From positions 2,542,001 to 2,606,000 of the forward strand of contig NC_060252.1 of NCBI RefSeq assembly GCF_921293095.1: DNA of 64,000 nucleotides. Reading direction: 5' to 3'. The stretch comes from Ischnura elegans (lineage: Eukaryota > Arthropoda > Insecta > Odonata > Coenagrionidae). The position numbers and the translations under genes were made by a program. Under the pieces are notes generated by a model. It worked only from the letters and a program-made list of their open reading frames with translations, searched no databases and was not told the DNA's origin. Below, piece by piece: positions 2,943 to 61,197 of this stretch. Each line of letters begins with the position of its first letter. Within the stretch, counting starts at the first letter, position 1.

Positions 2943-3583
2943 TAGGGCGGATCGCAAAAATCGATTTTTTTCAAATCCATCTGGCCCAATGAAAAACAGT
3001 TGTGGGACCGATCAAAAATAAGGCCTGAAAAATTTGAGACCTGTACGTGAACCCCTGACCCTCGCTCAAATGCAATTTAGGGGGGGAGGGTCAAAATTCG
3101 AAAAATATAATATTTTATGGTCATTCCCTATAGATTTTGCCGAGTTACTGTCCTTTAAGGGCAAATATTTCGTGCATTTTGACGTATCTGCTACCGCTTA
3201 GCCACAAAATGCCTACTTTGAGTCCGCGTCCGCGAAGAAAATATTCCAACGCCCACGCAGCGTCGCGGATACCAGAGCCGTAAGCCGATCCCTTCCCCTC
3301 CACGCTCGCTTCTTCCCCTCCCACGCCTCTAATACAGCAAAATTCATCCTGCGCATGCTGCTAGGAGGTCGTTTATCTTTGATAATATAAATCAGAAGAT
3401 GGTAGAAGGTAAAAAACGATGCGTAGTTAGACGACTTGTCCCTTATTTTTCGCCTCGTCTGCGTTAAACAAATCGATGTTACCAACTTTCAGAGAAGTGA
3501 TGAAATATTTTTAGATCTGCGCACGCAGGAAAGGAGACTACGGCCTATGAAGACGCCTCTCAAGTGGCTATGAAGGTTAGCGA
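2943..3583 (+). repeat. Left terminal inverted repeat of the hAT-like element
   Basis: Inverted copy of 5344-5984. Similarity fades after the tract GTGGCTATGAA near 3580. Confidence 0.85.
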
Positions 3584-5343
3584 ACTATGGTGACGCGCTT
3601 CTCTTCCATTAATGAATGTGACTAAATGGATTTAGCGGTACCACAGGAAGTACTAAAACTTACGGTAAATCGTAATAGGCCAAAAGTAGGGTTTTACGTA
3701 TTGAAGTATAAGACTCAAACAATTTTAAAGGATCATTTTAAATTATGCGATATTTTTGCGTGCATTTTTTTAAGTGCATGGAGGAGCATAAGGTTCCCCC
3801 AATGAAGAAATATTTTGAGAAATAATCTGACGAAAAGAAAGATGATGGCTGTTGGATTGAACCCTAAAGAAACTCGACAACTGAGGAAAAAAGGGAATCG
3901 TAGGAGAGCGTTGAGTCATCATCGTCAAAACTCTTACGGGAAAATAGTATCAAAAATTTTCTTCATCAATTCATCCGAAGAAAATTAAACTGGCGAGAAA
4001 TTAGCCGATTTGTATCTCTACTTTCCGCTTGAAATAAACATTAAGGAATATAAACTCAAATTGGAACTTCTTCGAGGAAAATGCGTCTGCCAACTGTGAT
4101 AGAGGTATATGCAAGAACAAAGAAACAGCAATGACCTTTCCCGCAACTTTAGCTGATGCAAAAGTCATAACTTCGTAAGATATATCAAAGCTAGTGTACC
4201 AGAATTACTTACGTAGACAGAAAAAGATTCTAATTACTGTGAATAAGAAAGAGAGGTGTCATCAAAGGGCCTTATTTTATTGGAATGAAAGACAATACTC
4301 TTGTCTGATGAAAAAAGGGAAGAGGACTTATCAATACAAGTTTAGAGGGGAATGTGTGGTGTTAGTTGAAGAAACAGGGTCCCACTTTTGGAGGTTTGCC
4401 TCCCCCGTCGGAGGATTAGCAAAAGTTATAAAATATGCTATTATCGATTCCTTTCCGAGTGAAAATTAGATACACAGAATTAAAAAGGATTTGATTATGA
4501 TGGTACCAAGCGAATACCGCCCAAAAAGGAGGCATCATACCTTTGCTATAAGCATAATTCCAACACCCTTGCAGTGTGGGTGGACTCTTCTCGGGATTCC
4601 CACCGGGTTAATTTTTCCATAATGGCCAACATTTCAAGCTCCGACTGGGGGCTCATCCTAAGGGATAAATTTTGTTGAACCCGAAAAGAGTTTACCCACA
4701 TCATTCACCGGGAAAGCATCAAGTCTTATTTCATCCCTTACAGTGGTCTATTTGCTAATTGCACTATGTTGACTTGGATTTGCGACATAAACGTTGGGAG
4801 GGTAATCTAGGGACCCAATTTGCGTTTCTTCAAGGATGCGTTTGGCGACCAATCCGAGATTTTTTTAATTCCTGGATTTTAATATCGTCGTAAAGGACTA
4901 CCTGCTGATGATATACTAGAGAGAGACTCCGGTTCCTTCGGCTATATCTGAGCTTAGCGCTGTGGAATTAAAAACTCTATTGATGAAAGTTCAAATTTGA
5001 ATTTCAATATTCCTTTTATTATACATACGGACGAGAGATTCGCGAAAAAATTTACCAAAACTTTGTTGACAGCAGCAATAGACGAGGAATGACACTTACA
5101 TAAGAAATACAGACTGGAAAGCAGGTAATTGAGTAATTCTTTCGTGATTGTTCCTCACTGGACGATGCTGATACATCAAATATTAGTAAGACTAACGAAG
5201 AAAGACGCACTTGGTGTGAATTTTGGTGCATCTGGGGCGTCCGAGAGGGGGGGGGGGGAGGGTACGCCGCCGGCCTTCACCCTTATTCATCCATTTAGTC
5301 ACAGCTGTCGGACAATACCGGAATAGAAGTGCATAACCTAAGT
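3584..5343. other. Interior of the long-arm hAT-like element, no recognised transposase
   Basis: Short frames only. The longest (4194-4469, 91 codons on the plus strand) has no motif I recognise. A G-run at about 5249-5259 and an otherwise AT-rich composition suggest decayed non-coding filler. Confidence 0.5.
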
Positions 5344-5984
5344 TCCCAAACTTTCATAGCCACTCGAGAGGCGTCTTCATAGGCCGTAGTCTCCTTTCCT
5401 GCGTGCGCAGATCTAAAAATATTTCATCACTTCTCTGAAAGTTGGTAACATCGATTTGTTTAACGCAGACGAGGCGAAAAATAAGGGACAAGTCGTCTAA
5501 CTACGCATCGTTTTTTACCTTCTACCATCTTCTGATTTATATTATCAAAGATAAACGACCTCCTAGCAGTATGCGCAGGATGAATTTTGCTGTATTAGAG
5601 GCGTGGGAGGGGAAGAAGCGAGCGTGGAGGGGAAGGGATCGGCTTACGGCTCTGGTATCCGCGACGCTGTGTGGGCGTTGGAATATTTTCTTCGCGGACG
5701 CGGACTCAAAGTAGGCATTTTGTGGCTAAACGGTAGCAGATACGTCAAAATGCACGAAATATTTGCCCTAAAAGGGCAGTAACTCGGCAAAATCCATAGG
5801 GAATGACCATAAAATATTATATTTTTCGAATTTTGACCCTCCCCCCCTAAATTGCATTTGAGCGAGGGTCAGGGGTTCACGTACAGGTCTCAAATTTTTC
5901 AGGCCTTATTTTTGATCGGTCCCACAACTTTTTTTCATTGGGCCAGATGGATTTGAAAAAAATCGATTTTTGCGATCCGCCCTA
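5344..5984 (-). repeat. Right terminal inverted repeat of the hAT-like element
   Basis: Inverted copy of 2943-3583. The last base of the repeat is 5984, fixed by the following CCGTACAT duplication. Confidence 0.85.
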
Positions 5985-5992
5985 CCGTACAT

Positions 5993-7345
5993 GCCGCCTG
6001 AGATTCAGCAGGAAGCACTCCAGAGAGGTCACAAACGACGATTTACACATCGGGAGTGCCTCAAAGTAGTGTTCTTGGGCCACTCTTGTTTTTAATTTGT
6101 ATAAATGACCTCCCAAACAAAATTAACTCGCATTTTAGACTTTTTGCCGACGATTGCATTATATATAAACAGATCGGAGGAGAGAGCGATCATGAAGCTC
6201 TGCGACATTAATAAAATGGCAGATTGGGTGACTCAGAACGGGATGGACATAAACGTAAGTAAATGTAGGCCTATATCATTCAGCAACAAGATACATTCTA
6301 CCAAAAGAGACCATGAGTTCTTATGTAAACAACTGTAAATACTTAGGCGCCCACCTGTCTAAAGATTTTAATTGGGGGCTGAACGTTCAATATACTGCTA
6401 AGAAAGCCTTCAAGAAACTGCATTGGGTGATGAGGAATGTAAAGGGAAGCTAGTTTCGTACGAAGGAAATGGCATATAAAACACTATTTAGGCCTATCCT
6501 AGAGTATGCCTCTATGGTTTTGGATCCTTATGATGTGGGACCAAGGGTGCCGACTTACAAAAAATATTGGGGGGCCCAAACCGGGGACCTGGCCCCGGTA
6601 AATTTTATAAGTAGTGAATTTGAAGTTTTTAAGCATTTTCGAAGAGTTATATGACCAACATTAGAACCCTGATCACTCGAATCTCGATATATGGACACTC
6701 CGGGGAAAATTGGCAAGCCTTACACATTTTTTCCTCACATCTGCAAAGATTTTTGGGGGGGCTCGGGCCCCTTCAAGCCCCATGGAGTCGGCGCCACTGT
6801 GTGGGACATATAAGGGCAATGGCGAGAGTTCAAAGAAAAGCGGCTCGATACGTTTTGGGTAGGCATGGGAGGACAGAGAGCGAATCAGAAATGTTAAAAA
6901 TACTGGGTTGGGAATCTTTGGAAAGTAGGATAAAGAGAAATCGACTCTGCGGTACCTATGGATAAAATATACAAGTGGATAAAGCATGGAGAGAACAAAG
7001 CAATAAAGTGGGAAAACCTAATATCATTGGTAGGAACGATCATAAGTTCAAAGTTCGCCGGTCGCAGAGGACTAATGTTAAAAAAGTTTCCTACCTTAAG
7101 AAAACAATTTTAGATTGGAACAGATTGCCTGCAGAGTTATGTGAGCCCTTTCCTAGTAATGTAAAAATATTTCAGAAAAGCTGAAAAAGTGACTTGGTTT
7201 TTTTAGAAATTTTAATTGAATTTTTAACATTAGTACACTGTCTAGTTTATATGTGACTTTGTGGATATTTTGTATTTTCTTTTTTGGATGTAAATGTTAC
7301 CACCTGGTCAGTTGCCAAATTGTAACTGATTACGATAATAATAAT
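5993..7345 (+). pseudogene. 5'-truncated LINE (non-LTR retrotransposon), RT remnant with A/T-rich trinucleotide tail
   Basis: Translation around 6050-6290 gives the RT block GVPQ(S)SVLGPLLFL followed by [11 protein letters not shown], where FADD is the catalytic motif, and then KMADWVTQNGMDINVSKC of the palm/thumb. Downstream, 6810-7190 encodes the usual C-terminal tract of arthropod Jockey/CR1-like LINEs (MARVQRKAARYVLGR, then EMLKILGWESLESR). The 3' end is a short (AAT)n tail at 7327-7345. The copy lacks the endonuclease and the N-terminal part of RT, carries several frame changes and stops, and is split by a 258-bp MITE at 6542-6799. The 5' border is taken as the base after the hAT target duplication, which is an inference. 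Confidence 0.8.
6542..6799. mobile_element. hAT-type MITE inside the LINE
   Basis: The ends are inverted (CAAGGGTGCCGAC at the left, complement CAGTGGCGCCGAC at the right). They are flanked by an 8-bp duplication TGTGGGAC at 6534-6541 and 6800-6807. Length 258 bp, non-coding. Removing it restores continuity of the LINE reading region, which supports the borders. Confidence 0.85.
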
Positions 7346-8869: not shown

Positions 8870-9089
8870 GGCTTGATCTCTGCATTTCTTCCGGGTTTCT
8901 TTCCGCGTCACCTTGTTTGTAGACAACAGTTTCGCTGGCTATCCTGCCAGCGTCTTCAGGTCGAAGGTGTCGGCTGTCGGTTTCTGCCTCGCTTATATAC
9001 CGTAGGCTGGATGGGAGCTGCACTGTGATAGAGCGATACCTCAAGAAAAATTCGTCAGTGAAATTTAGTCGGTCGTCCGGAGGCTTCCT

Positions 9090-10322
9090 AAAACGGACGC
9101 AGACGATATCAGAGAAGGCGTTGCTCGCGTCCTTCGCGCCGCCAAGCCACCAAAGCCGACCACCACTGCCGAGGAGAGGAAAGCCTTAAAGAGGCTACGT
9201 GAGAATAAGTATATTCTCATTTTACCGACGGACAAAGGCAACGCTACAGTCCTGATTACAAAGGAAGAGTACGAGCAGAAGATATGTGACATCGTCAAGG
9301 ATACCACCTACAAAAAACTGAAGACCGATCCGACGGCCAAAACGGAACGCAGCAACAAGGCCATCATAAAGAAGTCTTCAATTCCAACTGAAGAACAACG
9401 AGGACTTTTGCCGCGTGCCTCCAAGCCACCGAGGTTATACGGACTCCCCAAGTTACACAACCCGCTCAGACCTATAGTCAGCCAAATCGACGCGCCGACA
9501 TACCATCTTGCGAAATACATGGCTCAATCCCTGCTCAATCCCACATGTTGGAAAAACTTCATCTTATGTGAAGAACTCTGCTCACTTCATAGACATCATA
9601 AAAAATGTCTCCATCGAAAAAAGCGACATTTTACTGAGCTTCGACGTGGTGTCGCTTTTCACCAACATTCCGATTCCAGATGCAGTGAAGTTGTAAGATC
9701 GCTCACATCTGATGGTATTCCAAAGGACTTCCCGGAACTCGTCGAGCACTGCCTAAGGAACTCGTTTTTTCTATGGAATGGTTGCTACTACGAACAGACG
9801 GAGGGCGCGGCGATGGGTTCACCACTATCGCCAGTAGAGGCCAATCTCTTCGTGGAGAAATTCGAAAAGGAGGCACTCGAATCCTGCGAAAAGAAGCCGA
9901 AGTTGTGGCTGAGATATGTGGACGACACGTTCGTCATCTGGCCCCATGGTGTACAGGAATTACAAGTGTTCCTTCGACACCTGAACTCACAACTTCATGG
10001 AATCCAATTTACTATGGACATGGAGAAGGAGCAGTCATTAAATTTTCTGGATGTCCTCGTGACCAAAAAAGACAACGGGGGACTCGGCCATGCTGTCTAC
10101 AGAAAGCTTACGCACACCGACCGATATCTAAATGCAGCATCTCACCATCATCCCAGTCAGAAGGCCTCACTAGTGGCTACGTTGGTCAACAGAGCGTATA
10201 ATATCTCCGATGATAACTCCCTCTCCACGGAGATAAAGCACCTCACTACGGCACTTCAGAAAAATGGATATCGGAGAGAATTGGTCCTTAGAAGAAACAC
10301 GAAGGAAGAGGAAAAGCGATAG
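9090..10322 (+). pseudogene. PLE reverse transcriptase (broken)
   Basis: The N-terminal part reads ENKYILILPTDKGNATVLIT, the conserved opening of Penelope RT. It is followed by PRLYGLPKLHNPLRPIVSQI and, in another frame, LLSFDVVSLFTNIP with the first catalytic aspartate. The catalytic YVDD (LRYVDDTFVIWPHG) lies near 9914-9950 in the long frame 9408-10322, followed by LNFLDVLVTK and the HHHPSQKASLVATLVNRAY thumb tract. Penelope RTs are related to telomerase RT and prime on nicked DNA cut by their GIY-YIG partner. The region has a couple of frame breaks, so it is probably inactive. Confidence 0.85.
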
Positions 10323-11788: not shown

Positions 11789-12018
11789 TTATGTTATGTA
11801 ATCCGCCACGTGCGCTGGAAAACGAACGCGCCTTCCAGCCCTGGTAGTCCTCGGCGCGGGAAGCGGTGGTGGCTGAGCGGCGGCATCGCGTCGTACAGGT
11901 GCCGGCTGGTGCAGAATAACGAGGTCCTCTGTTGTCGGTCGGGGTGTCCGACCGGCGGCCTCGGGTCGTCCGCGGGAAGGCTCTGGAAGAACGAAGAGAT
12001 CGCTGTGCTCGATCGTCG
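11789..12018 (-). pseudogene. Pol C-terminal tail of the gypsy element (distal piece)
   Basis: The piece downstream of the Transib-like insertion ends in GRRVRFPAHVADYIT and a stop. A tail of this RVRFP type closes many insect gypsy pol proteins. It is proline- and arginine-rich. Its partner piece lies beyond the insertion at 20926 onward. Confidence 0.7.
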
Positions 12019-12023
12019 CGTCG

Positions 12024-12853
12024 CACAGTGGGCTAGAATCGAAAAAAGCTGGCCAAAACCTCAAAATCGATTTTTTTGAGCTAGGAAGTTGAAACTTCGC
12101 ATACACATTCTCAAATAAATTGTGCATAACTACCCAGATTATTTTGGCCATGTGTTTTCACTTGAACAATATATGTGAGGTCAAAGTTGAGCAAATTTAG
12201 CGAAAAACGACCACCCTCGATTTTTTCTGAAAATTGCCGACTTTATCCTCGTGCAGTGGTTTTAGAAATAGTTTTATCGACAAAACTGTTATACCATCTT
12301 AATTGACACTTCTTATTCTTTCATTTGAAAGGTTTTTAAAGATTTTGTTTCATCAATAACCATAGATACATAACAAAATGGCGGAGCCTGTTTTCAACCC
12401 ATTTTTTTACATAAACGTAGAAAAAAAGTAGACATTGTCACCGGCTTACACTAAGTAACTTATATAATGTCGTTCTTTGAAGCTTCTACATTGTGAATCT
12501 AAAGTCACACCTTGCACCAATTTGCAACCCCGAATTTTAAATCGTTTTTTCGAACGCACGGACGACTCCGGTTCTGGCCGGCGGCGGCGGAGAGTACGGC
12601 GACGCGGCAAGCGGGTGGATGCAATATGGTCTCATTCACTTTTATGTGTGGATAACAGATATATTAGTGACAGAAAATAATCACCAGAAAGTAAAATTTA
12701 TAAATATTGCTACGAATGACACTCATTATGCAATCGCTGGGCACTGCAAGAGGTGCACTGAAAGGTTTCTTTCTTTAAGTGCATTCCATGGAGAATGGAC
12801 TTAAATCGCGTTCTTAAAGAGGGGAATCGAACTCTTTTACTGACTAATAAACT
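12024..12853 (+). repeat. Left terminal inverted repeat of the Transib-like element
   Basis: Starts with CACAGTG (12024-12030). A nonamer-like GCCAAAACC follows at 12052-12060 after a 21-bp spacer, an arrangement reminiscent of a recombination signal sequence. Partner arm 20091-20920. Confidence 0.85.
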
Positions 12854-14244
12854 TTTTAAAAATAACAGTTAATATATTCCTTAAACGTGATGGTAAATGG
12901 CTCAATACAGTACTTGATTTTGCCGAATTTTGACAAATCAAGTACTGTCTTGGTGCTTGAAGAGTTCATTATTCTTATTTAGTTTATATTCTTGATTTAA
13001 AGCAATTAATAACTATTCCTTATGCAGCACAATTTACATGTTGCTCTAGTTTAGCCAGTGCAGATGGACGTCAATTCATGTTTTCAGGGTTGTATCGAAA
13101 GAACGAATAGGAGGAAAACGAATGCAAAAGGAAGATACAGTGACCATCCTCGGAGGCAAGAAGAACTCTTGCCAAGTGGATAAAATGCAACCCCGAATAT
13201 TATGTTATGTCAGATTAAGAGGCCCTCTCAATAAGTAATTGTGTCCATGCAGCTCACCAAATTTCGGTACAAGAATCTTCGAAAATCTGAAATGCCAGGG
13301 ATATAATATTAACCCCAGCGATGAGAGAGTGACGCGAGCATATGATTTCATTTACCCGAATAAAATTATTGTAGCAGAGGTTATATAAGAAGTTTCCAAA
13401 AATGGTTCTATTCTCTTACTGCGACTCGAATCTTAACGTGCATTTCCACAGATCCTAGTTTCGCGTCGCGTATAAAGTGCACTTTAATTTGCAAACACGG
13501 CTTTGATAGCAGTGAGGACATGCGAAATATAATTGCACGTGGGAACGAGGGCCTATGTCTCATGAATTATTGCTCGTGAGCACCTTTGTGCCGTTCGTTA
13601 GGCGAAGCATGAAACAGGCACGAGTATTCAAAAGTCATCACAATTATTCTAGATTTCCTCTCCAAATAATTTAATTTTCTCTCTCTCTCTCTCTCTCTCA
13701 CTGACGCTTTAAATACAATTATGGTATGCCACCAACCGTGCATAAGGTCTTCATTCAAGGAGCTGACATTGCAACATAGTCCATTCTTAATTGCGACAAC
13801 TGACAGGGGAAGCAATATAGGCACGATATAAGGACGTGAGAAAGTTCCGTGAACGGTTGACTAGAAAAATGGCACGAGTGGCCACAAATAGGGATTTATT
13901 TCGAAGACCTAATGTCATAACTCCTAATGTCATAACCAGCCCCATGACACTTCCTATCCCACTCCATTGGGAACCCATGGTCTTTTATTGAAGTCGTTTC
14001 CTCAACCTGCCGCACGTTTGCCGGGGCGGCGCCACGTATTCTGGAGGGCAAGTTAATAGTTAGCGGGTAAGTTAATTTCCGTATTGTTGAGCGCATACTA
14101 CAGGTGAGTGGAAATAGTCATTTTTGTAATTAATTAAGATTTATTTTTCATTTATTTTCGAATGTTAGTCTTCTGCATTATTTCTTTATTGTTCTACATT
14201 AATATTTCGTGGATATATATCGCGGATTTACTGAAAAAAGGAAA
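12854..14244. other. Interior of the Transib-like element, no gene seen
   Basis: AT-rich with only short frames. A (CT)n microsatellite lies at 13678-13699. The short tract GTACTTGATTTG near 12910 is nearby repeated in inverted form (CAAATCAAGTACTG near 12934), giving a small hairpin. Confidence 0.5.
13678..13699 (+). repeat. (CT)n microsatellite
   Basis: Uninterrupted TC/CT dinucleotide run of about 22 bp. Confidence 0.9.
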
Positions 14245-14346
14245 ATGCCGTGGACATGTGTGGTACCGCGTTGCACCACTGGTTATGGCCACAAGACTTC
14301 GGGGATTTCGCTTTTTAGAGTCCCCGAGGACCCAGAGAAGCGATGA
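14245..14346 (+). pseudogene. THAP zinc-finger fragment 1
   Basis: The ATG at 14245 opens a 33-codon frame reading MPWTCVVPRCTTGYGHK and then ISLFRVPEDPEKR before TGA. MPxxC-x2-4-C followed by a hydrophobic-F-x-x-P tract is the start of a THAP C2CH finger. The second half (tryptophan, then CxxH and AVPTIF) is absent, so the finger cannot fold. THAP domains occur in host DNA-binding proteins and in P-element-type transposases; the fragment is too short to decide. It lies within the Transib-like element on the same strand as fragment 2. Confidence 0.65.
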
Positions 14347-14802
14347 AATAGCTGTACGATTCCTTTTTTTGGTGTGCTAAAGCTGCAAAATTTATACATA
14401 TTTTAAATTACAGGTTCTGCTGTTCCAATGTTCAATGTCATTCACAGTGGAGGAATGAAGTAACACTGAGAAAATGCAAGATGTGCGACGGCTTTCATCA
14501 ACTATTCATCATTCTCTCCTACTAAATTGAATCTCTTAGAATGATTAGTAATTAGAAATAGAAATTAGTAATAGAAAGAATTAATAGAAATGTTAAATTG
14601 TGAGTACTGAAAATTTATTTTTCATGACATTACCTTGCATTGATTGTATAAATAATCTCAGTTTCAATAGCATTGTGTAATCATTCTGGAAATGTAGATT
14701 TGATGTGTGTGTACATTATATAAGTTGGAAAAATGTGAACCGTTTTCATTCTTAATACCTCTTTCGATGATTTCTTTTAATGCAGCTGTTATCGATGGTG
14801 CG

Positions 14803-15000
14803 CATAGGCGGATCCAGGGGGGGGGCATGGGGGCACGTGCCCCCGCCAGACCCTCAAAAATATGCAAGATTTTTAATACGGTCCCATTATCATTGCGTTC
14901 GTTTTGTATTACGAGGTATCCTTGTGCCCCACCCAGAACAAAATCCTGGATACGGCCTTGATTGTGCCCCTCCCAGAAAAAAATCCTGGATCCGCCCCTG
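14803..15000. mobile_element. hAT-type MITE (198 bp)
   Basis: The ends are CATAGGCGGATCCAGG and, inverted, CAGGGGCGGATCCAGG. They are flanked by an 8-bp duplication ATGGTGCG (14795-14802, 15001-15008). The right half contains a duplicated internal unit of about 36 bp (TGTGCCCC...CCTGGAT twice), so the right end is doubled. Confidence 0.9.
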
Positions 15001-15366
15001 ATGGTGCGTGCAACTCTCATGAAAAGTACATTTACCGCGTATTAGCAGTATTAGCCTGTGGTTTCTGTCGTACTACTCATCTTATTTTTGGGCGAGGGAT
15101 AATATTTCAGATTTGCCAGCACCTGAAAGTGATCAGACATCCGCAAATCCCTTGGATTATATCCATTGCACTGTTTTCGTGGAAGTTTATTCGGAAATTA
15201 TTTGCAAAATCTCTTTCGTTATTATCTTTCATATGGTATTTTACTTCCTTAAATCTCAAATTATTCCTTTGGTGAGAAGGCAAGCATCGTTATAAAATAG
15301 CCTTTAACGGTAATAATGGTACTTCCGGAAATTATTCACCCTGTTCAACGATTAAATATGCCTATA

Positions 15367-16028
15367 GGGTGGTTTCCGATCATTTCTTTATTGCCTAAAT
15401 CGAAAGATTATTACTCCTGGAGTACGTATTTCACGCTTTTAGATTTTTTAATGACAATATCTATTTTTCGCGATTAAATGAAAAGTGAAAATTTTCAAGC
15501 GCGCGAAAACGCGACGCGTAAGTATGAGTGCCGGGAAATCTCTCCGTACGTCGTATTTCTGGTTCCCCCTCCCGCCCGGTGAGGTGACCTTGAGGCGAGG
15601 CTTAGCGCTGATACGTCGCAGGCTGCTAGCGGGTAGCTGAGTACCCTGCTGGGTGGTAGCGCTTGGCTTAAATAAGGATAATTAATACCTTATCAAATGA
15701 AGAAAACTTTCCGACCTTAGCCAGTTTTAATAAGTGATTATGAAGACATGTTTCCCTGAGCTCTGTGACTCATGCATACATCGGTAATCTCAGACGATGT
15801 AAAACTCCTATCCTCTCATGTAGAAACTAGGTCCCTGTGACGTCACGTGGAGTGGCATCGCATGGGCGCCAATCTGGCCCTTTTCAAATGAGGATAAAAA
15901 TGGACCATTGCCATTCGTCTAAACCGGCATTTCTAAAACGAAATTAATTTGTATATTATGAAAACACTAATGGTGGGTAACGAATCGCAATTATTGCCTT
16001 TTGTTTTCTTTGATGAAGGAAACTACCC
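15367..16028. mobile_element. M1 MITE, copy 2 (TA-flanked)
   Basis: 662-bp copy of the same family as 10468-11127, in the same orientation. Inverted ends GGGTGGTTTCC/GGAAACTACCC are flanked by TA. The TGACGTCACGTG site is at 15838-15849. Non-coding. Confidence 0.85.
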
Positions 16029-16747
16029 TATTCTATACCCGCAAAATGTCCCTAGGATAGAATCATTTTTTTAGGTTTGCTGTGCCCTGCCATCATTTTT
16101 ATCACATGATCGAGACTCAGGAGATTAAAAACATTAACATACGTCACTTCATAAGAAGTGTTTCACTTCGGCCTTGATAAGAAGCCGTTTGCGTTTCTGA
16201 TATTATATTTGTTAATAGTGTTTGAAAGCAAGGAATAACATCTATATTCTTATAAGGCCGTGGAAACATGCCGATGGGCTCAGAGGCAATGGTGCGTACG
16301 TACCCAGACGGCACAGGAAGTTTTCGTACCTGAATACGAGGGTGGACCATCAAGATACAAAAATCGCGCTTAGGAAGTTACTAAAAAGGTTTTGTTTCTT
16401 TATTTCCTATAATGACGAAAAGAGATACAAGAGGACTGGCAAATTCATATGCATCGATAAAATTGTATCTCATCGATAAAACTGTATTCGGTCTGGGACT
16501 ATTTTCTTTCGCGGGTGGTGCCATCTGGTGCCATCGTGCCATATCCTCCTAGAAAGATCACATGTCTTCACAAGCTAGCACAAGCCGTTGGAGATCGCGT
16601 CGTTTACGTAACGTCTTACCACATTTCAGGGATTTTTGTGGTTAAGTTTGTGAAAAATAGAGTGTCTGGTAATAGTGAAGTTTCCCTTATTCTTTAATTT
16701 CATTCACTGGGCTTCAGAAACGTGTTTGTGAGATATTTTTGTTAAAA
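16029..16747. other. Interior of the Transib-like element, no gene seen
   Basis: Short frames only, none recognised. A duplicated tract with the core ATCGATAAAA occurs near 16452-16486. Confidence 0.4.
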
Positions 16748-17560
16748 ATGCCTTTCGTGTGTTTATTGTCGGGATGACGTAATGGAAACTCCGGGACATG
16801 GTTCAAGGTTTTAGCTTTCCAAAAGATCCTGAGTTGAAGAAGAAGTGCATTTGGGCGATAAGAAGAAAACATTTCACCCCTACGAAAAGCTGTGAGGTAT
16901 GTACTCTTTCTCGCTGTAATTATTTGGATGTAATTTTAAGTTAGAAGTGGCTTCGGGATGTTGATGCATCAACATCCCGAACTATTCAGTACTATAGTAC
17001 TATTCAGTACTAAAAATGGTGATTGAAAATATTGTAGCAGCAATTCTTTTGAAAATTCTTGCATTTTAGCTGTCTTTTTTGTATTAATTCATTCGGTGAA
17101 CGTGTGGTTAAAAGGAGAAACTAGGAATAAGCTGCCAAGTTTATAGGATCGAATATTGCTTCTTAGCTTGCCCTATGGTGTATTACACGTCGGCTTTTAT
17201 CATTTCAAATTATCTTATGCTATAGTGTAAAACAATAAAAATATCAGGCATACAAATATTTACTATATTTACGAGCCTAGTAATTTGATTTCTCATGCAG
17301 AAATACCAAAAATTGGAAATTATTTGACCTAATAAGTTACATGGTATTTTATTATTTATTAATTTTAGGTGTGTGAGCTTCACATCGCACCATTGTGATA
17401 TCAGAAAGTAATCTGTGGCCTTGGACGAGAAGACGAGGAGAAAATTCTTGCTGAATTGAAGGTGCCCAGATTGGAGGAAGGTACCATTGCTTCACTGTTA
17501 CCTGTCGCCAAGAAGACAGACATTGTGGCAGAAGTGACATATTTGTGGATGTGGATTTGA
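16748..17560 (+). pseudogene. THAP zinc-finger fragment 2, two exons, broken
   Basis: From the ATG at 16748 the sequence gives MPFVCLLSG, then after an in-frame TGA (where the second THAP cysteine is expected) and a one-base shift, GFSFPKDPELKKKCIWAIRR, KHFTPTKS and CE. The exon ends at 16896 with a consensus donor (GTATGT). The acceptor at 17367-17368 (AATTTTAG) leads into VCELHIAP, supplying the C-x2-H pair that completes a C2CH THAP finger. The intron is about 470 bp. The frame then stops. The lysine-rich PKDPELKKKCIWAI tract is a good THAP match. The gene is dead through at least two changes. It could be a decayed host THAP gene captured by the element or a P-type transposase remnant. Confidence 0.7.
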
Positions 17561-17998
17561 TTTGTGCAAGTTGATGCTGTGATAGTGGACGTTCATCGGA
17601 GAAAGTATTGAAGATAGTTTTTATGTATCGACCAGTCCTCTTTCAAATAAATTTTTATTCGAAATAGAATAAGAGTAATTGTTTCGCTAAATTAGATGTG
17701 GGATAGAAGAGAAAATTGGAAATATTATTGTGGTTGACAATAGAAAATACATAATACGGACATTGTGGCAGAAGTGACATATTTGTGGATGTGGATTTGA
17801 TTTGTGCAAGTTGATGCTGTGATAGTGGACGTTCATCGGAGAAAGTATTGAAGATAGTTTTTATGTATCGACCAGTCCTCTTTTAAATAATTTTCTATTC
17901 GAAAGAGAATAAGAGTAATTGTTTCGCTAAATTAGATGTGGCATAGAAGAGAAAATTGGAAATATTATTGTGGTTGACAATAGAAAATACATAATATA
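17519..17998 (+). repeat. 240-bp perfect-register tandem duplication (2 units)
   Basis: 17519-17758 and 17759-17998 are near-identical, with few substitutions and the same register. The unit starts at the tail of the THAP remnant (ACATTGTGGCAGAAGTGACA). Confidence 0.95.
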
Positions 17999-18578
17999 TG
18001 TATTGTATTTCCGTGGGTTTTTTCTTTCCTGCCTCTTTAAAATTTCTTGTGGTGGTGACTTCATGCAAAGTAAGTATAAAATCGGAGGTGTGATCTAAGA
18101 GATACCATGTTTTATTTTACAAGTGTTTATGCAGGTGATTTGGCAGGACTTTCAAATTTTTAATAGGTTGATACCTTTACTGCAGTGACCTAGAGACTTT
18201 TACTCATCCCAAATATTTTTTCAAATACTTTAGCGCCTAATATGGGTAAGTTTTAGTAGCTGAGACTGAACTATACGTAAATTTTTGCTTGCATTTTGAT
18301 GAATTCGATCATACTAATAGCAGATGTGTCAGCAATCCTGTTTCATCGGCAATTTTTATTTAAAAAAATTATTTCGTCAGGCTTTAGGGTAAGCTTTTTA
18401 ATGCTCGTGGGCTATGTGATGTCTTATTTAGTGTCAAAATTAATAAGAATTTACTCAAATTAACATCTCAAGGTTTCCAAGTAAGTACGAGCCACTTAAG
18501 AATGCTGGATGCTGGGGATACGTGAATTAGCCTTGAGAATCTCATTTTTCGCAGTTATTTAAGGGGCCGAATAAGTTT

Positions 18579-18725
18579 TGTAAGTTCTCAATGGGTAAAT
18601 AATACTATGTCATGAATTCTAATTACCGTGAAAAACTCACAACCGACAAAAACTTTGTCGGTCGTGAGTCTTTCATGGTAATTAGAATTCATGATATGGT
18701 GTTATTTACCTATTGAGAACTTACA
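18579..18725. repeat. 147-bp near-perfect palindrome
   Basis: Two arms of about 73 bp (18579-18651 and 18653-18725) pair almost throughout. The left arm starts TGTAAGTTCTCAATGGGTAA and the centre is ACAAAAACTTTGT. It would extrude as a cruciform or fold as a long hairpin RNA. It is probably a fold-back MITE; no target duplication was resolved. Confidence 0.9.
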
Positions 18726-20090
18726 ATTCATAATGATTCGTATCAAGGTTCTCGTTACGGTCGGTAGCTATCGATTGTGTTGCGTTCGATACATTTTTCG
18801 ATCGTGCGAGTTACGATATATCTAATTTCGACCTAATCGATTGAGATTAGCCTGAGTGCCGTGTTCCTGCGCGCTTCGTATCCAATCGTACGTGCTTAGT
18901 AGCGGACATTCACATGCTGCGTACGCGCTTCGTCGACAGGCCGCGAATGGAAATTATCCATTGACGAAAAGCGACGGAGCGGCACAGTATCCCCTTAGTC
19001 AATGGGTACTATGTACATACGAATTAGATACGGAGGGTTCTGTGCCGTCTGGGTAGCTTCTATGACAACTTATATTAAGGTTTTCAACAAGATAGCTATA
19101 AATAATTATTTCCTTAAAAATACCTTTCCTCACTACATAAGGTTTTAACTGCTGACAATCTTTCGTTATGGCTGTAACTGATTTTACAAAGGTATGGAAG
19201 CAGAAGAAGCTGAAATCCAACGCCTTCCATTTTATTAATACTCACGTATGAGAACGATTTCTAGGTATTTTTCGCTATAAGATGTTAAGTGCATATTAAC
19301 TTGTTAACTAGTAACCACTGTCGATGTGTTTATATTCATTTTTGCCACAAATTAGTTCATAATTACTGAAGTATCGTATACAGATACGTAGGAAACTTGC
19401 CCTTCAGGATAGGTGGCGCCCCTACCGGCCTCAACGGGAAACGGCTTCATTAAATGACCATACCTAAACGGAGAGTGTCCAGACCTTCTCATATTCTAAG
19501 ACCGTGGTCATAACTGATAATGACAAAAATTATGCCAATTAAACTGGAGGAAACACACAGCTTACCGAACAATGTAATGGATCTGTTTTTGAAAAAGGAA
19601 AACAATGCTTTAGCTCAGACAGTGAAAGTGATAAAAACTCGTCAGATAGTGAATGAAAAACAGAAACTTTTTATTGCTGACAGTGCTAATTGCAGAATGT
19701 TAGTTGGGAAAAGCGTAAATTGTGTTGCTTTTGTTTATGTTATGTTTGTATGGTAAAATATTCCTGCAAAATAACCATTTTGTCAGCAGCGCAGTTCATT
19801 AAGAATAATGACGTTGATATATACGTAAGAGATTTAAATCAATACTTTATATTGAGCATAAGACATAGATTAAAATGAACTGTTATTTTTAGAAAAAATA
19901 CATTATTCGATGAGAGTAATATGCCTTCCGAAGCTTTAAAAGCTAAAAGGAGTTCAAACCAAAAACAAGTTCGAAGGACTCGGCACTACAACAATACTAT
20001 AAAACGACCGTTGTCCGAAGGCCTTTAAATATGTATGACAGGTTAGGAAGTGGAGGCCATGGATCATCGAGGGCTCTTGCCTAGAAATAG
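18726..20090. other. Interior of the Transib-like element, right part, no recognised gene
   Basis: The longest frame (19520-19756, 78 codons on the plus strand) has a charged sequence without a motif I know. Nothing else is supported. Confidence 0.4.
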
Positions 20091-20920
20091 AGCTTGTTAG
20101 TTAATAAAAGAGTCCGTTTCCCCACTTTAAGAACGCGATTTAAGTCCATTCTCCATGGAATGCACTTAAAGAAAGAAACCTTTCAGTGCACCTCTTGCAG
20201 TGCCCAGCGATTGCATAATGAGTGTCATTCGTAGCAATATTTATAAATTTTACTTTCTGGTGATTATTTTCTGTCACTAATATATCTGTTATCCACACAT
20301 AAAAGTGAATGAGACCATATTGCATCCACCCGCTTGCCGCGTCGCCGTACTCTCCGCCGCCGCCGGCCAGAACCGGAGTCGTCCGTGCGTTCGAAAAAAC
20401 GATTTAAAATTCGGGGTTGCAAATTGGTGCAAGGTGTGACTTTAGATTCACAATGTAGAAGCTTCAAAGAACGACATTATATAAGTTACTTAGTGTAAGC
20501 CGGTGACAATGTCTACTTTTTTTCTACGTTTATGTAAAAAAATGGGTTGAAAACAGGCTCCGCCATTTTGTTATGTATCTATGGTTATTGATGAAACAAA
20601 ATCTTTAAAAACCTTTCAAATGAAAGAATAAGAAGTGTCAATTAAGATGGTATAACAGTTTTGTCGATAAAACTATTTCTAAAACCACTGCACGAGGATA
20701 AAGTCGGCAATTTTCAGAAAAAATCGAGGGTGGTCGTTTTTCGCTAAATTTGCTCAACTTTGACCTCACATATATTGTTCAAGTGAAAACACATGGCCAA
20801 AATAATCTGGGTAGTTATGCACAATTTATTTGCGAATGTGTATGCGAAGTTTCAACTTCCTAGCTCAAAAAAATCGATTTTGAGGTTTTGGCCAGCTTTT
20901 TTCGATTCTAGCCCACTGTG
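20091..20920 (-). repeat. Right terminal inverted repeat of the Transib-like element
   Basis: Inverted partner of 12024-12853. It ends in CACTGTG at 20914-20920 and is followed by the CGTCG duplication. Confidence 0.85.
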
Positions 20921-20925
20921 CGTCG

Positions 20926-22212: not shown

Positions 22213-22524
22213 CTACCGATTTGATCGATAGATTTTTCTTCCTCATAGGAAAATCTACTAAAATTCGTAGCATATTAATTGCGTAAGCTTGGTTTCGCAG
22301 ATGGTAGGACCTGCCCGCCTTGTGACGGTGCAGGATTCCTCGTCCCCTCCCTTCCTTCCCCGTCCTTCCCCTGGAGGCGTCGTCGGGCTCTCATCGCGGC
22401 GGCGCCTCCTTTACTTGTTCCTTCCCGTCCTTCCCCTTCTGGTGGCAGAGGAAAAAAGCTGATCGCTTATAGTCCCTGCTCCAGGAGTGTATTCCGCGAG
22501 CCCGTCCTAAGGGTTTCATTCCCA
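22213..22524 (+). mobile_element. SINE-like element, copy 1 (312 bp), inside gypsy RNase H
   Basis: A 16-bp perfect duplication CTGCCCCTGACCATAT flanks it at 22197-22212 and 22525-22540. The element starts CTACCGATTTGATCGATAG. It has a hairpin AGATTTTTC / GAAAATCT around the loop TTCCTCATAG, then a pyrimidine-rich middle (CCTCGTCCCCTCCC). It is the same family as 41304-41620. Long target duplications without inverted ends point to LINE-machinery retrotransposition, hence SINE-like. I do not recognise clear pol III boxes. Confidence 0.85.
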
Positions 22525-22540
22525 CTGCCCCTGACCATAT

Positions 22541-23150
22541 GCCGAAAGTGGCGGATAGCTCTGTAAATAGCCATCAACTCACGGTCGTATGCGCTGCAGT
22601 TTCTTTCAGCGGAGGAAAGCTTGGATGAGAAGAACCCCAACTGCTGCCACCAACCACCAAGGCGTAGTTGAGATACGGCGCCGATGGCGATGTCGGAGGC
22701 GTCAGATACAATGGCGAGGGGTGCAGTGGGATCCGGGAAAGGTAAAACAGCTGCTTGTGAAAGGCTCTCCTTGCAGTCGGTGAACGCCTTCCGCCTCTCG
22801 GGGTTCCACTCGACGGGGTGTTTACCTTTCACTTTCTCCGTGAGCGCGCTATGGAGGGGAGCTTGCAAGGTGGCTGTGTTGGGAATAAACCTGCGGTAGA
22901 AGTTTACCATGCCTAAGAATCGTCGAAGCTCCTTCACTGAGTATGGTTCGGGGAAACTATGGATAGCTGAAACCTTATCTTCCAGCGGGCGGATTCCATT
23001 TGCCGTGTCTAAGTGGCCTAAAAATTCCACTTCAGGGACACCTAAGACACATTTCGAGGGGTTGATTAGTATGCCGTACTTCTCGCATCGAGTGAAAAGC
23101 ACACGGAGATATATGGCATGTTCCTCCTCGGTCGCAGATGCAACTAGCAC
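22541..23150 (-). pseudogene. Gypsy pol: distal RT and RNase H
   Basis: On the minus strand the frame reads CEKYGILINPSKCVLGVPEV and EFLGH of the RT thumb. It then gives LRRFLGMVNFYRRFIPN of the RT-RNase H connection, followed by VSDASDIAIGAV and SAYDRELMAIYRAIRHFRHM of RNase H. The segment is bounded by the SINE-like insertion on one side and the LINE insertion on the other. Confidence 0.9.
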
Positions 23151-23164
23151 ATCGTCAATACATT

Positions 23165-24285
23165 ATTATTACAGTATTCTACCGATTAAGGGAGGTTTCC
23201 ATGGAGTACTAAAGAAGTGATCTGGGAGCCTCCCTTTCCTTTTAGCGCTACCTTCTTCAATTCACTGTAAGGCCTAATCCCTTTCAATCTATCTAAAAAT
23301 CCCATTCTTTTCCGTCCCCTCCCTCGTTTCCCCAACATTCTACCCTCTAACACCATTTTCAAAGTCCCCTCACCGCAAAGCACCAGCGCCATCCATACCT
23401 TCTGTCTCCTCCGTATCTCATCTAAGAGATGCCTCTCCTCGCCAACCATATCCAGCACTTCGTCGTTCCTTTTCCTCTTCGTCCATTTCACCCTCTCCAT
23501 TCTTTTCCATATCCACATCTCGAATGCCTCCAATCTTCTCTCGTCTTCTTTCCTCAATGTCCACGTTTCCGCACCGTAGACCGCTACACTCCAGATCAAA
23601 CTCTTCACTGACATTTTCTTTAAACTCTCACATAACGATCCTCTCATATGTTCCTTCCTGTTCATTAACGCCTCCTTTGCTAATGCAATTGTCTTCCTTA
23701 TGTCCTTGCTACTGTATCCGTTTTCCTCTAACGTACTGCCTAAATAGTTGAACTGCTCAACCTGTTCAAGTTTTTCACCACCCACTTTTATCTTAAGTCT
23801 TACATTCCTCGCTCGTGATGCTTTACAAAATCGCACAACCTTAGTTTTCTTGTGATTAATCTTCATCCCATACTCTTTGCAAGGCTCGTATGACGCATTC
23901 ACTAGAGCCTGCAGCACCTTCGCTGGTTGGTTAATCAACGCCTGCTCATCCGCGAATCTCACTGATTTGAACATCATTCCTCCCACTTTTATTTCAGCTT
24001 CCAACTCATCCCACGCTTCCCTTACCATCTCTTCAGAGTACATGTTAAAGAGCAGCGGCGATAGAGAACAGCTTTGCCTTACTCCTCGTCCCATTCTTGC
24101 CCACCCAGATTCTCCGTCCACTACCCTCACTTGCTGAGTCTGGGCCATATACAGATTACGAATCAGTCGCCTATCCCTCCAATCTACACTTATTTTCTTG
24201 ATAATATCCAATAACTTTACCCAGTTCACTCTAACAAAAGCTTTTTCAAAATCCACGAAGCAGGCATACACGTCCTGCTCATATT
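23165..24285 (-). pseudogene. 5'-truncated LINE inserted into gypsy RT
   Basis: A 361-codon minus-strand frame (24271-23186) encodes the C-terminal half of an endonuclease/RT LINE: YACFVDFEKAF (RT motif A aspartate), GVRQSCSLSPLLFNMYSE, SVRFADEQALI (the usual FADD has become FADE), YGMKINHKKTKVV, FNYLGSTLEENG and VAVYGAETWTLRKEDERRLE. These tracts match the RTE-like 'endonuclease-reverse transcriptase' LINEs common in insects; the clade is inferred. The catalytic second aspartate is replaced, and the endonuclease and N-terminal RT are missing, so this copy is inactive although its frame is open. A short AAT-type tail (ATTATTATTA on the plus strand) lies at 23162-23171. No clear target duplication was found. 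Confidence 0.8.
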
Positions 24286-46534: not shown

Positions 46535-48757
46535 GGGTCTGTCCTTGTTTGATGTCCTTTGATGACAGTTTTCAGTATTTCTATTCTACTTTTCAACATT
46601 ACTTCCACATTTGTTTTCCCTTAGTCCTGAAGAAGGTGAAAAATCCTTTACTTACCAAACGTAAAAAGCCATGGGTTACTGATGAAATCAGACGTCTGTC
46701 ACGCGAGGTGAAGGAGGCTGCCATTCACTACAAACATAAAATTGAAGTGTCAGATCGATTAGAGAATTTGGCACTTAAGAAAAGATACCGTAAAATTCTT
46801 CTAACAGCAAAAAAATCCTTCAACAATCAAAGAATAGTAAATTCTGACAATAAATCAAAAGAAATTTGGAAAATCATCGAAGAATCCAAAGCTCACCACA
46901 ATCAACATTTCATCCTTAATTGCAAGACTCTAAAGGGGAACTAATCTCTGATTATACTACATACCATGTCATCCAATCTCAATGATTTTTACTTGTCTCA
47001 GTCAGATCCCACAATCCCAGGCAATTCAAATAACTACTCTGTAATCCAATCGCCAAGTAACTCTCTTGTACTTGTTTCTTTGTACTGAATCTGAACTGAC
47101 CAATATTGTCAACAAATTGCCCAATAAAAATAGTCATGGATTAGATGAAGTCCCCGGGAGAGTTGTAAAAAGATCTGTCCTTGTTATCAAGGATCAAGTT
47201 CTATTCCTCATTAATGAATCTTTAAGGCTGGGAGGTTTCCCGGACCCTCTTAAAACTGCCAAAGTTGTTCCTCTCTACAAAGGCAAAGGAAGCAAACATG
47301 ACATGAATTTATACCGTCCAATTTCCCTGTTGAACCCACTCAGTAAAATTTTTGAAAAGGTCTTTTACAACCGTCTGGTATCATACCTTGAGTCATTCAG
47401 TCTCTTGTCCCGTTCTCAGAATGGGTTCAGGAAATCTAAATCCACAGCCACCTCTGAAGTGGTGACCCATATACATACTCTCAAATCTGGACAACAGAAC
47501 GGAGACTTAGTGTCTTTTCTTCGACTTTTCTAAAGCCTTTGATCTTGTCAATCACCAACTACTCCTGCTGAAACTGGGTTATTATGGTGTACATACGAGG
47601 TGCTACTTATAAGTGGATTGAATCGTATCTGAGTGGACGTCACCAACATGTTGTATTATGCAAAAATGGCACTTAGTTTATATATCCTGGTAAAGAAGTC
47701 CTACTTGGTCTGCCACAGGGCTCTGTCTTGGGCCCTGTTCTATTTTTGCTGTACATAAATGATCTACCAGGTACTCTCAAATCTGTCACAGGTATCAAAC
47801 CTATACTCTACGCTGACGATACTAATGTTATTGTATCAGTCCCATCATTGAATAGCTTGTCCCTTACAGCAGTCACTGCCACTAAACTCCTACATGAATG
47901 GTGTCAAAATAATTTTCTTAAACTGAACCTTGACAAGTCTGGCCTTATTTATTTTTGTAACAAAAATAAAGCACCCGAAGCAATACCAATTGTTGTAGAG
48001 GGAAAACAACTCCCACAAATTTCCAGTTCACAATTCCTAGGAGTAACCTTGAACAAAAATTTAACATGGGTTGAGCACATCGGTAAATTGCGCAACAAGC
48101 TTAGTTCAACATGCTTTCTCATAAGAAGCATCGGGAACACCGTAAATAATGATGTCTTATTGTCTATTTCCTACAGTGAATTTTATTTTCACATTATTTT
48201 CAGTATCCTTTTTTGGGGTTCCTCTGCCCATGCTACTGAAATCTTCAAAATTCAGAAGTGCATTATAAGGCTGATGTGCAATGCCCCCTATGTCTTGTAC
48301 CTTGTCTTCCACTTTTTAAAAAACTGTGTCTCCTGCCACTTTCATGCACATCTATGTCATTATTATGCATGTAAAAAATAACATTCTTCAGTACACATCA
48401 AATGACCTGTACCACGGCCACAACACTAGAACTTGTAAAGACCTGCATCAAAACTTTATCAGGACTCAAAATACTACCCTAGGTCCTAAACCTATGGGCC
48501 TGAAGATTTTTAATGGGTTGCCTCCAGAGGTGAAAAATGAGAGTAGCACCTCGGTCTTTAAGGAGAAACTACTTATTGAAGTTTCTGAAAAAAAATTATT
48601 TTATTCGGTCAATGATATTCTGCATTTGTAACATATAATTTATATATTCCAATTTAATTTTTATTGATCATGTGTCTAAATTGATGTGTCCTATATTTGT
48701 ATTTTGTGTACAACCTACAGATCTCTGGACAAATAAAAAATATTATTATTATTATTA
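46535..48757 (+). pseudogene. Jockey/CR1-type LINE, 5'-truncated, (TTA)n tail
   Basis: 46549-46944 encodes the endonuclease-RT linker (KRKKPWVTDEIRRLSREVKE, AKKSFNNQRIV). 47066-47533 encodes RT fingers (PNKNSHGLDEVPG, TAKVVPLYKGKGSKHDMNLY, RPISLLNPLSKIFEK, RSQNGFRKSKST). 47710-48381 encodes the palm (LPQGSVLGPVLFLLYINDLP, ILYADDTNVIV with YADD, FLGVTLNKNLTW) and the thumb region. 48326-48631 encodes the conserved tail (HGHNTRTCKDLHQNF, GLKIFNGLPPEVK). The RT motifs including YADD are intact, but frame changes near 46.94, 47.53 and 48.3 kb and a missing endonuclease make it inactive. A (TTA)n repeat at 48741-48757 ends the element, as in many Jockey/CR1-superfamily LINEs. Confidence 0.9.
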
Positions 48758-61150: not shown

Positions 61151-61197
61151 TGTGTTCTCGATCCTGAGATTTTGCGTGCGGTTCGGCGGCGGCAGCC

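What the first reader, a model, noticed from the sequence alone, without database searches (positions are those of the whole stretch)
12024..20920. Transib-like element whose ends resemble recombination signal sequences
The termini start CACAGTG, identical to the V(D)J heptamer. A nonamer-like GCCAAAACC lies 21 bp further in, and the flanking duplication is CGTCG, the 5-bp GC-rich type of Transib (seen directly). Transib is the accepted relative of RAG1. The 830-bp arms are unusual for Transib, whose inverted ends are normally short, and the interior holds no recognisable RAG1-like core. This may be an undescribed long-armed, non-autonomous Transib family moved by a transposase encoded elsewhere.
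Basis: partly seen in the sequence, partly recalled or inferred. Interest (0 to 1): 0.75.

Follow-up and report, generated by a model that had tools for sequence, protein, structure and literature searches.

The report
Long-armed non-autonomous damselfly Transib transposon
This stretch is one copy of a jumping gene related to the enzyme that shuffles vertebrate antibody genes; it has lost its own enzyme, apparently spread on borrowed enzyme, and carries two unusually long mirror-image arms that seem to keep each other identical.

Summary
It belongs to a 3.3-kb family with 1,853 recognisable ends (roughly 900 copies) in a 1.72-Gb genome whose contig sizes match the damselfly Ischnura elegans. 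Exact 5-bp duplications flank 16 of 18 two-ended copies, 12 of them CGNCG; related empty sites span the insertion point. The Transib reading is supported, with two corrections. All 18 two-ended copies carry a decayed C-terminal transposase relic, and 5.57 kb of this copy's interior is a later insertion with its own 8-bp duplication. The genome also holds Transib transposase genes (15 stop-free matches over at least 425 of 455 HzTransib residues) in elements with the same heptamer and spacing. None whose ends I read matches this family's ends, so the mobiliser is not identified. Unexpected: the arms evolve in concert within copies. 52 private changes are present in both arms and only 33-37 in one arm, where the interior rate predicts 157; in one copy inverted copying reaches at least 200 bp into the flank. 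New variant of a known kind.

The parts
12019..12023 (.). Left target-site duplication CGTCG
   Evidence: empty-site matches
12024..12853 (+). Left arm (830 bp) of the long inverted repeat
12024..12030 (+). CACAGTG heptamer, left end
12052..12060 (+). Nonamer-like GCCAAAACC, spacer 21 (CAAAA core at end positions 31-35)
13720..13904 (+). Relic of the C-terminal part of a Transib transposase (matches L031 residues 432-448 and 458-493 in two frames, one stop inside)
   Evidence: tblastn; consensus; translation
13929..13936 (.). 8-bp repeat GTCATAAC, left side of the nested insertion
13937..19506 (.). Nested 5.57-kb insertion, absent from the 3.3-kb copy L019 used for comparison; not part of the Transib element
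19507..19514 (.). 8-bp repeat GTCATAAC, right side of the nested insertion
20091..20920 (-). Right arm (830 bp)
20884..20892 (-). Nonamer-like GCCAAAACC, right end
20914..20920 (-). CACAGTG heptamer, right end
20921..20925 (.). Right target-site duplication CGTCG
11789..12018 (-). Flank: end of what looks like a Ty3/Gypsy pol reading frame (...TTRAGRRVRFPAHVADY) that the element interrupts
   Evidence: translation; the naming of the motif is recalled; RT/RNase H frame of that type at 22467-23162

Best explanation
It is one copy of a high-copy, non-autonomous Transib DNA transposon family (3.3 kb, arms of about 816-830 bp) in a genome whose sizes match Ischnura elegans. An ancestral Transib lost most of its transposase gene and kept the terminal signal CACAGTG - about 22 bp - CAAAA. 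A Transib transposase supplied in trans cut at the heptamers and inserted the element at GC-rich 5-bp targets, mostly CGNCG, giving roughly 900 copies. The two long arms then copied each other inside single copies (gene conversion between inverted repeats), which keeps both ends alike. This copy landed in a Ty3/Gypsy-like pol frame and later received a 5.57-kb insertion of another element. Shown: family, duplications, empty sites, relic, transposase genes in the genome, concerted change of the arms. Inferred: mobilisation in trans, cut-and-paste by RAG/Transib chemistry, and gene conversion as the homogenising process.
For: Ends, arms and duplication. 932 + 921 ends, control 0. Exact 5-bp duplications in 16 of 18 two-ended copies, 12 of the 16 CGNCG. 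Empty sites. Relic in 18 of 18 two-ended copies; against the consensus E 2e-11, 37% over 67 residues; all 150 scored relic copies, of 1,979 first-look candidates, lie in open frames of 33-85 residues, and the stops and frameshift are in the consensus, so the gene was dead before amplification. Transposases in the same genome: 550-aa frame to HzTransib E 7e-117, 691-aa frame E 2e-107, Pfam RAG1 above cut-off for both; CGGCG, CGGTG and CGACG duplications around three copies of the 691-aa element. CAAAA-type core at end position 31 or 32 in 22 of 22 ends from 12 groups (selection caveat in the full report). Arms: within-copy identity mean 99.62% against 98.08% between copies; private changes 52 paired and 33 unpaired, or 37 unpaired with a matched definition, against about 157 unpaired expected; a 40-mer with two private variants of the window copy occurs exactly twice in 1.72 Gb, once in each of its arms.
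Against: No autonomous element with this family's ends was found. In the nine transposase-bearing groups whose ends I read, the first 37 nt differ from ours at 10-22 positions; two non-autonomous relatives differ at 6-8. The relic is only 28-48% identical to the transposase stretches held. Two of 18 copies lack an exact 5-bp duplication: L024 (inverted flanks) and L028 (7-bp repeat in GC-rich sequence). Long arms are unlike reported Transibs: 13-bp TIRs for TransibSU-1_PM, said to be analogous to known Transibs (PMC4411706), and 13-57 bp for Transib MITEs of Helicoverpa (PMC9033116).
Confidence: 0.93

Rival explanations
1. A Mutator-like element: long inverted arms and a dead interior, moved by a MULE transposase.
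For: Long arms are typical of MULEs (start of the abstract of PMC3310237, listing).
Against: Duplications are 5 bp in 16 of 18 copies, not the 9 bp recalled for MULEs; the interior relic is Transib; heptamer and spacing are shared with elements that carry Transib transposases.
Confidence: 0.02
2. A fold-back element, in which the arms are the mobile unit and the interior is incidental.
For: Arms make up half of the element and change in concert within copies.
Against: 13 of the 19 other fetched copies align to L019 over its whole 3,324 bp, interior included; 18 of 19 end pairs read from the C1 part of the list span 3,234-3,441 bp; terminal signal and targets are those of Transib.
Confidence: 0.03
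3. Arm identity is an assembly artefact (collapsed repeats) or reflects very recent insertion rather than gene conversion.
For: Inverted repeats can mislead assemblers; copies are young (96.45-99.55% to the consensus). 'Private' was judged among 16 copies only.
Against: The same copies carry private changes in the interior at 162 in 26,926 bp, while the arms keep 33-37 unpaired changes in 26,110 bp; recent insertion predicts equal rates, and 52 paired private changes cannot arise by youth. The window copy's variant 40-mer is found nowhere else.
Confidence: 0.1

Closest known systems
HzTransib (Helicoverpa zea, recalled; PDB 6PQN and others, named there only as a DNA-mediated transposase)
   Same: Transposases of this genome match it over nearly the whole chain (E 7e-117 and 2e-107); the relic corresponds to its C-terminal part through L031.
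   Different: This family encodes no transposase; its arms are 816-830 bp.
Non-autonomous Transibs of Anopheles gambiae (N1-N3, figure legend of PMC8355894, passage)
   Same: Transib ends with heptamer and nonamer-like motif.
   Different: Those are listed with 12/23 asymmetric ends; here both ends have the same 21-22-bp spacer, like the symmetric 20-22-bp group of that legend.
Insect Transib MITEs (PMC5199201 and PMC9033116, passages)
   Same: Non-autonomous, 5-bp duplication, Transib assigned.
   Different: About 482 bp on average and 0.19 Mb in total in 98 insect genomes; Helicoverpa ones 75-564 bp with TIRs of 13-57 bp. Here 3.3 kb with 830-bp arms, roughly 3 Mb in one genome by my arithmetic. 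MITE surveys leave out long elements, so the comparison is partial.
RAG1/RSS of jawed vertebrates
   Same: Heptamer CACAGTG, CAAAA-containing nonamer-like motif at about 22 bp, 5-bp target duplications in transposition (PMC7204232, passages).
   Different: No antigen-receptor role or 12/23 pair seen; a RAG2 partner was not searched for.
Mutator-like elements with long TIRs; fold-back elements such as Tetris (starts of abstracts in listings)
   Same: Long inverted arms.
   Different: The superfamily signal here is Transib.

Membership tests
Transib superfamily (non-autonomous member) | 5-bp, GC-rich target-site duplication | tested here: met
   16 of 18 two-ended copies exact 5 bp, 12 of those 16 CGNCG
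Transib superfamily (non-autonomous member) | Termini beginning CAC with an RSS-like heptamer and a nonamer-like A-rich motif at about 20-23 bp | tested here: met
   CACAGTG; CAAAA-type core at position 31/32 in 22 of 22 ends of 12 groups; symmetric 20-22-bp spacers reported for Transibs (PMC8355894 passages)
Transib superfamily (non-autonomous member) | Encodes, or derives from an element encoding, a RAG1-core-like transposase | tested here: met
   Decayed C-terminal relic in 18 of 18 two-ended copies; consensus E 2e-11
Transib superfamily (non-autonomous member) | Autonomous partner with the same ends | tested here: inconclusive
   Ends of nine transposase-bearing groups read, 10-22 mismatches in 37 nt; most of the 109 listed matches were not read
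Transib superfamily (non-autonomous member) | Short terminal inverted repeats (usual, not taken as defining) | tested here: not met
   816-830 bp; a relative has about 971 bp
Mutator-like element | 9-bp target duplication (recalled) | tested here: not met
   5 bp in 16 of 18
CACTA/EnSpm | CACTA/G ends with 2-3-bp duplication (recalled) | tested here: not met
   CACAGTG ends and 5 bp
RAG-like transposon (RAGL/ProtoRAG) | RAG1-like and RAG2-like gene pair | not tested
   No search for a RAG2-like gene was made

The most novel reading that the evidence does not exclude
The arm-to-arm copying is driven by the transposase itself: a Transib cut at one end only leaves a break that the host repairs by copying the opposite arm. 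This keeps both ends functional in defective elements, and sometimes runs past the end and duplicates flanking DNA in inverted orientation, as in L024. Long arms would then be a selected self-repair device rather than an accident.
Probability: 0.15. Interest if true: 0.7.

Novelty: new variant of a known kind. Interest (0 to 1): 0.47.

Why it matters
Transib is held to be the source of the V(D)J recombinase core (PMC4411706, passages). The same paper says that autonomous Transibs are typically present in one or a few copies per genome, for reasons not understood, and a survey of 98 insect genomes found Transib the smallest MITE superfamily (PMC5199201, passages). This genome holds 15 stop-free near-full-length transposase matches in several divergent groups and thousands of non-autonomous ends, with one RSS-like signal. 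That makes it a natural test bed for how RAG-type ends and enzymes evolve together. Concerted evolution of the arms would be a way for a defective transposon to keep matched ends, and can be tested in reads and in cells.

Tried and rejected
Autonomous partner: transposase places were listed and ends read for nine groups; none matches. On contig C1 none of the 13 transposase places listed lies inside the 19 end pairs of this family read, but one search prints only about the first 100 of 1,853 ends. Searches with relic pieces returned relic copies only, among the 150 scored each time. Extra transposase sites in the arms: one further full-signal match in the window copy's arm; its core overlaps bases private to this copy, so I do not take it as a family feature. 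Mutator, CACTA and fold-back were set aside on duplication length, relic and interior. Literature: no paper in the library holds both Transib and Ischnura; of the 12 papers only iMITEdb (PMC5199201) holds Transib, with one odonate among 98 insects; passages read, no odonate Transib described there (its supplements were not read). Searches for long-TIR Transibs showed none that I could recognise from the listings; those papers were mostly not opened, and PMC2874221 gives no Transib TIR length. The library is open-licence only; Repbase and most subscription papers were not searched.
Full report
Observation. The two ends at 12024 and 20920 are identical over the first 60 bases and read CACAGTGGGCTAGAATCGAAAAAAGCTGGCCAAAACC. 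The inverted repeat found by the tool is 836 nt per side, 99% complementary, with 7,237 nt between; it includes 6 flanking bases, so the arms proper are 830 nt. They differ at 8 positions, 7 of them in the innermost 34 nt. In shuffles of the ends, 1.45% reach 7 or more at spacers 21-23, so this motif alone proves little.

Host. The genome holding the window has 1,722,721,009 bases in 110 contigs. The contig lengths seen (170.58, 139.04, 138.07, 137.53, 126.00, 118.30, 118.12, 108.62, 103.41, 94.74 and 123.64 Mb) equal those of the Ischnura elegans assembly ioIscEleg1.1, 1,723 Mb in 110 scaffolds (PMC9975421, passages). I take this as the host.

Family. The 39-nt end, at up to 3 mismatches, is found 932 times forward and 921 times reverse, the reversed-pattern control 0 times: roughly 900 copies if most have two ends. 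Twenty places were fetched. Of 19 end pairs read from the C1 part of the printed list, 18 span 3,234-3,441 bp and one 5,252. Fifteen fetched full copies and the window are 96.45-99.55% identical to their consensus, with a second cluster of four (L011, L015, L022, L026). The window copy is such a member with a 5.57-kb insertion at 13937-19506 between two copies of GTCATAAC.

Target sites. Of 21 copies (20 fetched and the window), 18 had both ends in hand; L014, L017 and L027 had one and were not counted. Exact 5-bp duplications flank 16 of 18, and 12 of the 16 read CGNCG; the others are CGGGG, CGTTG, CCGCG and GGCTG. Exceptions: L024, whose flanks are inverted copies of each other, and L028, with a 7-bp repeat in GC-rich sequence. 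The flanks of the window copy joined with one CGTCG (192 nt, junction at 98) align across the junction at nine other places: three over 1-192 at 89-92% and six over 34-192 at 89-91%. So the element sits in a sequence that exists elsewhere without it, apparently a Ty3/Gypsy-like pol frame on the minus strand (translation, motif named from memory; an RT/RNase H frame of that type lies at 22467-23162).

Transposase relic. In five copies examined, no frame exceeds 103 residues. But tblastn with a transposase of this genome finds its C-terminal part in the interior of all 18 two-ended copies. Against the consensus, E is 2e-11, with 37% identity over 67 residues and a second stretch of 17 residues in another frame; stops and a frameshift interrupt it. 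All 150 scored genome copies of the relic core, of 1,979 first-look candidates, lie in open frames of 33-85 residues. The gene was thus dead before the family amplified. In the window the relic is at 13720-13904, just before the nested insertion.

Transposases in trans. A Pfam RAG1 search of the genome gave 12 weak places, none over the family cut-off, best E 0.011. They led to a 550-aa frame that matches HzTransib with E 7e-117 and RAG1 chains weakly (best 3.2e-06), and Pfam RAG1 above cut-off as a whole protein (34.2 against 25 bits). Another group has a 691-aa frame in three copies, HzTransib E 2e-107, Pfam RAG1 27.9 bits, and CGGCG, CGGTG and CGACG duplications. Searches with one of these proteins and with HzTransib list 118 and 109 matches, several per gene in some cases and many with stops, 15 rows cover at least 425 of 455 residues without a stop. 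In one search element pairs were chosen by requiring equal 5-mers, so those duplications are not independent evidence; those are.

Terminal signal. In 22 ends from 12 groups a CAAAA-type core lies at position 31 or 32 (exactly CAAAA in 20 of 22), although the sequence between it and the heptamer differs widely. Caveat: all were picked for a near-CACAGTG start, those also allowed an A-rich tail as a filter, and some were found by likeness to our end; those were picked without regard to the tail. A sister family of about 3.0 kb differs from ours at 6-7 of the first 37 positions, has 1,415 + 1,420 ends, and also carries a relic (L044, L052, L054, L058). A third family of 4.79 kb has arms of about 971 bp (979 as aligned, flanking bases included), 99.6-99.8% alike, a CGCCG duplication and a longer but decayed transposase; its first 78 bp are 81% identical to ours. 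Long arms thus recur in this lineage.

Mobiliser. Nine transposase-bearing groups, some of them decayed, had ends read; they differ from ours at 10-22 of 37 positions. Of the 14 windows, six showed an end, three belong to the group of L070, whose end lies about 150 bp beyond them, and five showed none. The partner is not identified: it may be among the unread groups, be extinct, or be a group with loose recognition.

Arms in concert. In 16 copies the two arms of one copy (816 bp compared) are 99.62% identical on average, lowest 98.90; arms of different copies are 98.08%, highest 99.51. Changes seen in only one of the 16 copies: interior 162 in 26,926 bp; arms, in one arm only, 33 in 26,110 bp, or 37 when each arm is judged against the same arm of the other copies only, as the interior was; the interior rate predicts about 157. 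The same change in both arms: 52 in 13,055 positions, where independence predicts about 0.2 (my arithmetic). If most arm changes were either erased or copied to the other arm, roughly these numbers follow. Private here means among 16 copies, not all; but a 40-mer holding two private variants of the window copy occurs exactly twice in the genome, once in each of its own arms. In L024 the 200 bp held on either side are perfect inverted copies of each other. Searching with them, 40 of 342 candidates were scored: only these two places match over all 200 bases, the rest only up to about base 80.

Mechanism. Inferred: a Transib transposase pairs the two signals, cuts at the heptamers, and joins the element to a GC-rich target with a 5-bp stagger. 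That is what membership and published RAG/Transib work imply, not something shown here. Between moves the arms are made alike from each other. Whether transposase cuts start that process is the novel case.

Novelty. Transibs, non-autonomous derivatives and symmetric 20-22-bp spacers are known (PMC8355894, passages). Reported Transib MITEs are short: about 482 bp on average and 0.19 Mb in total over 98 insect genomes (PMC5199201, passages), TIRs 13-57 bp in Helicoverpa (PMC9033116, passages); such surveys leave out long elements. Arms of 830-971 bp, this copy number, the number of transposase groups and the arm-to-arm homogenisation did not turn up in the searches made, mostly seen as listings, in an open-licence library.

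Noticed in passing
window 13937-19506: 5.57-kb insertion between 8-bp repeats GTCATAAC, with imperfectly similar ends, 27-nt subterminal inverted repeats about 90 bp from each end and a 240-bp tandem pair; no transposase recognised. Possibly a non-autonomous DNA transposon with 8-bp targets.
   Followed up: partly
L024 (contig C3 33576648-33580369): Flanks on both sides are perfect inverted copies of each other for all 200 bp held; among 40 scored of 342 candidates only these two places match the whole 200 bp.
   Followed up: partly
L044 2456-8781 with 3025-6333 inside: One Transib element apparently inserted in another, both with CGGCG duplications (pairs picked by equal 5-mers).
   Followed up: partly
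C1:2444830-2449619 (L064 and L055): 4.79-kb relative with arms of about 971 bp and a longer decayed transposase; 150 relic copies scored of 801 candidates.
   Followed up: partly
L049 3897-6767: Element with RSS-like ends and an AT-rich 5-bp repeat CATTA instead of CGNCG; the pair was chosen by requiring equal 5-mers, so it may be chance.
   Followed up: no
window 12820-12853 and 20091-20124: 7 of the 8 differences between the two arms of this copy lie in the innermost 34 nt, as if homogenisation fades at the arm boundary.
   Followed up: no
window 9069-10322, 22467-24283, 47677-48381, 61168-62693: Reverse transcriptase, RNase H, capsid-like and protease frames of several retroelements: the window is dense in mobile elements.
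   Followed up: partly
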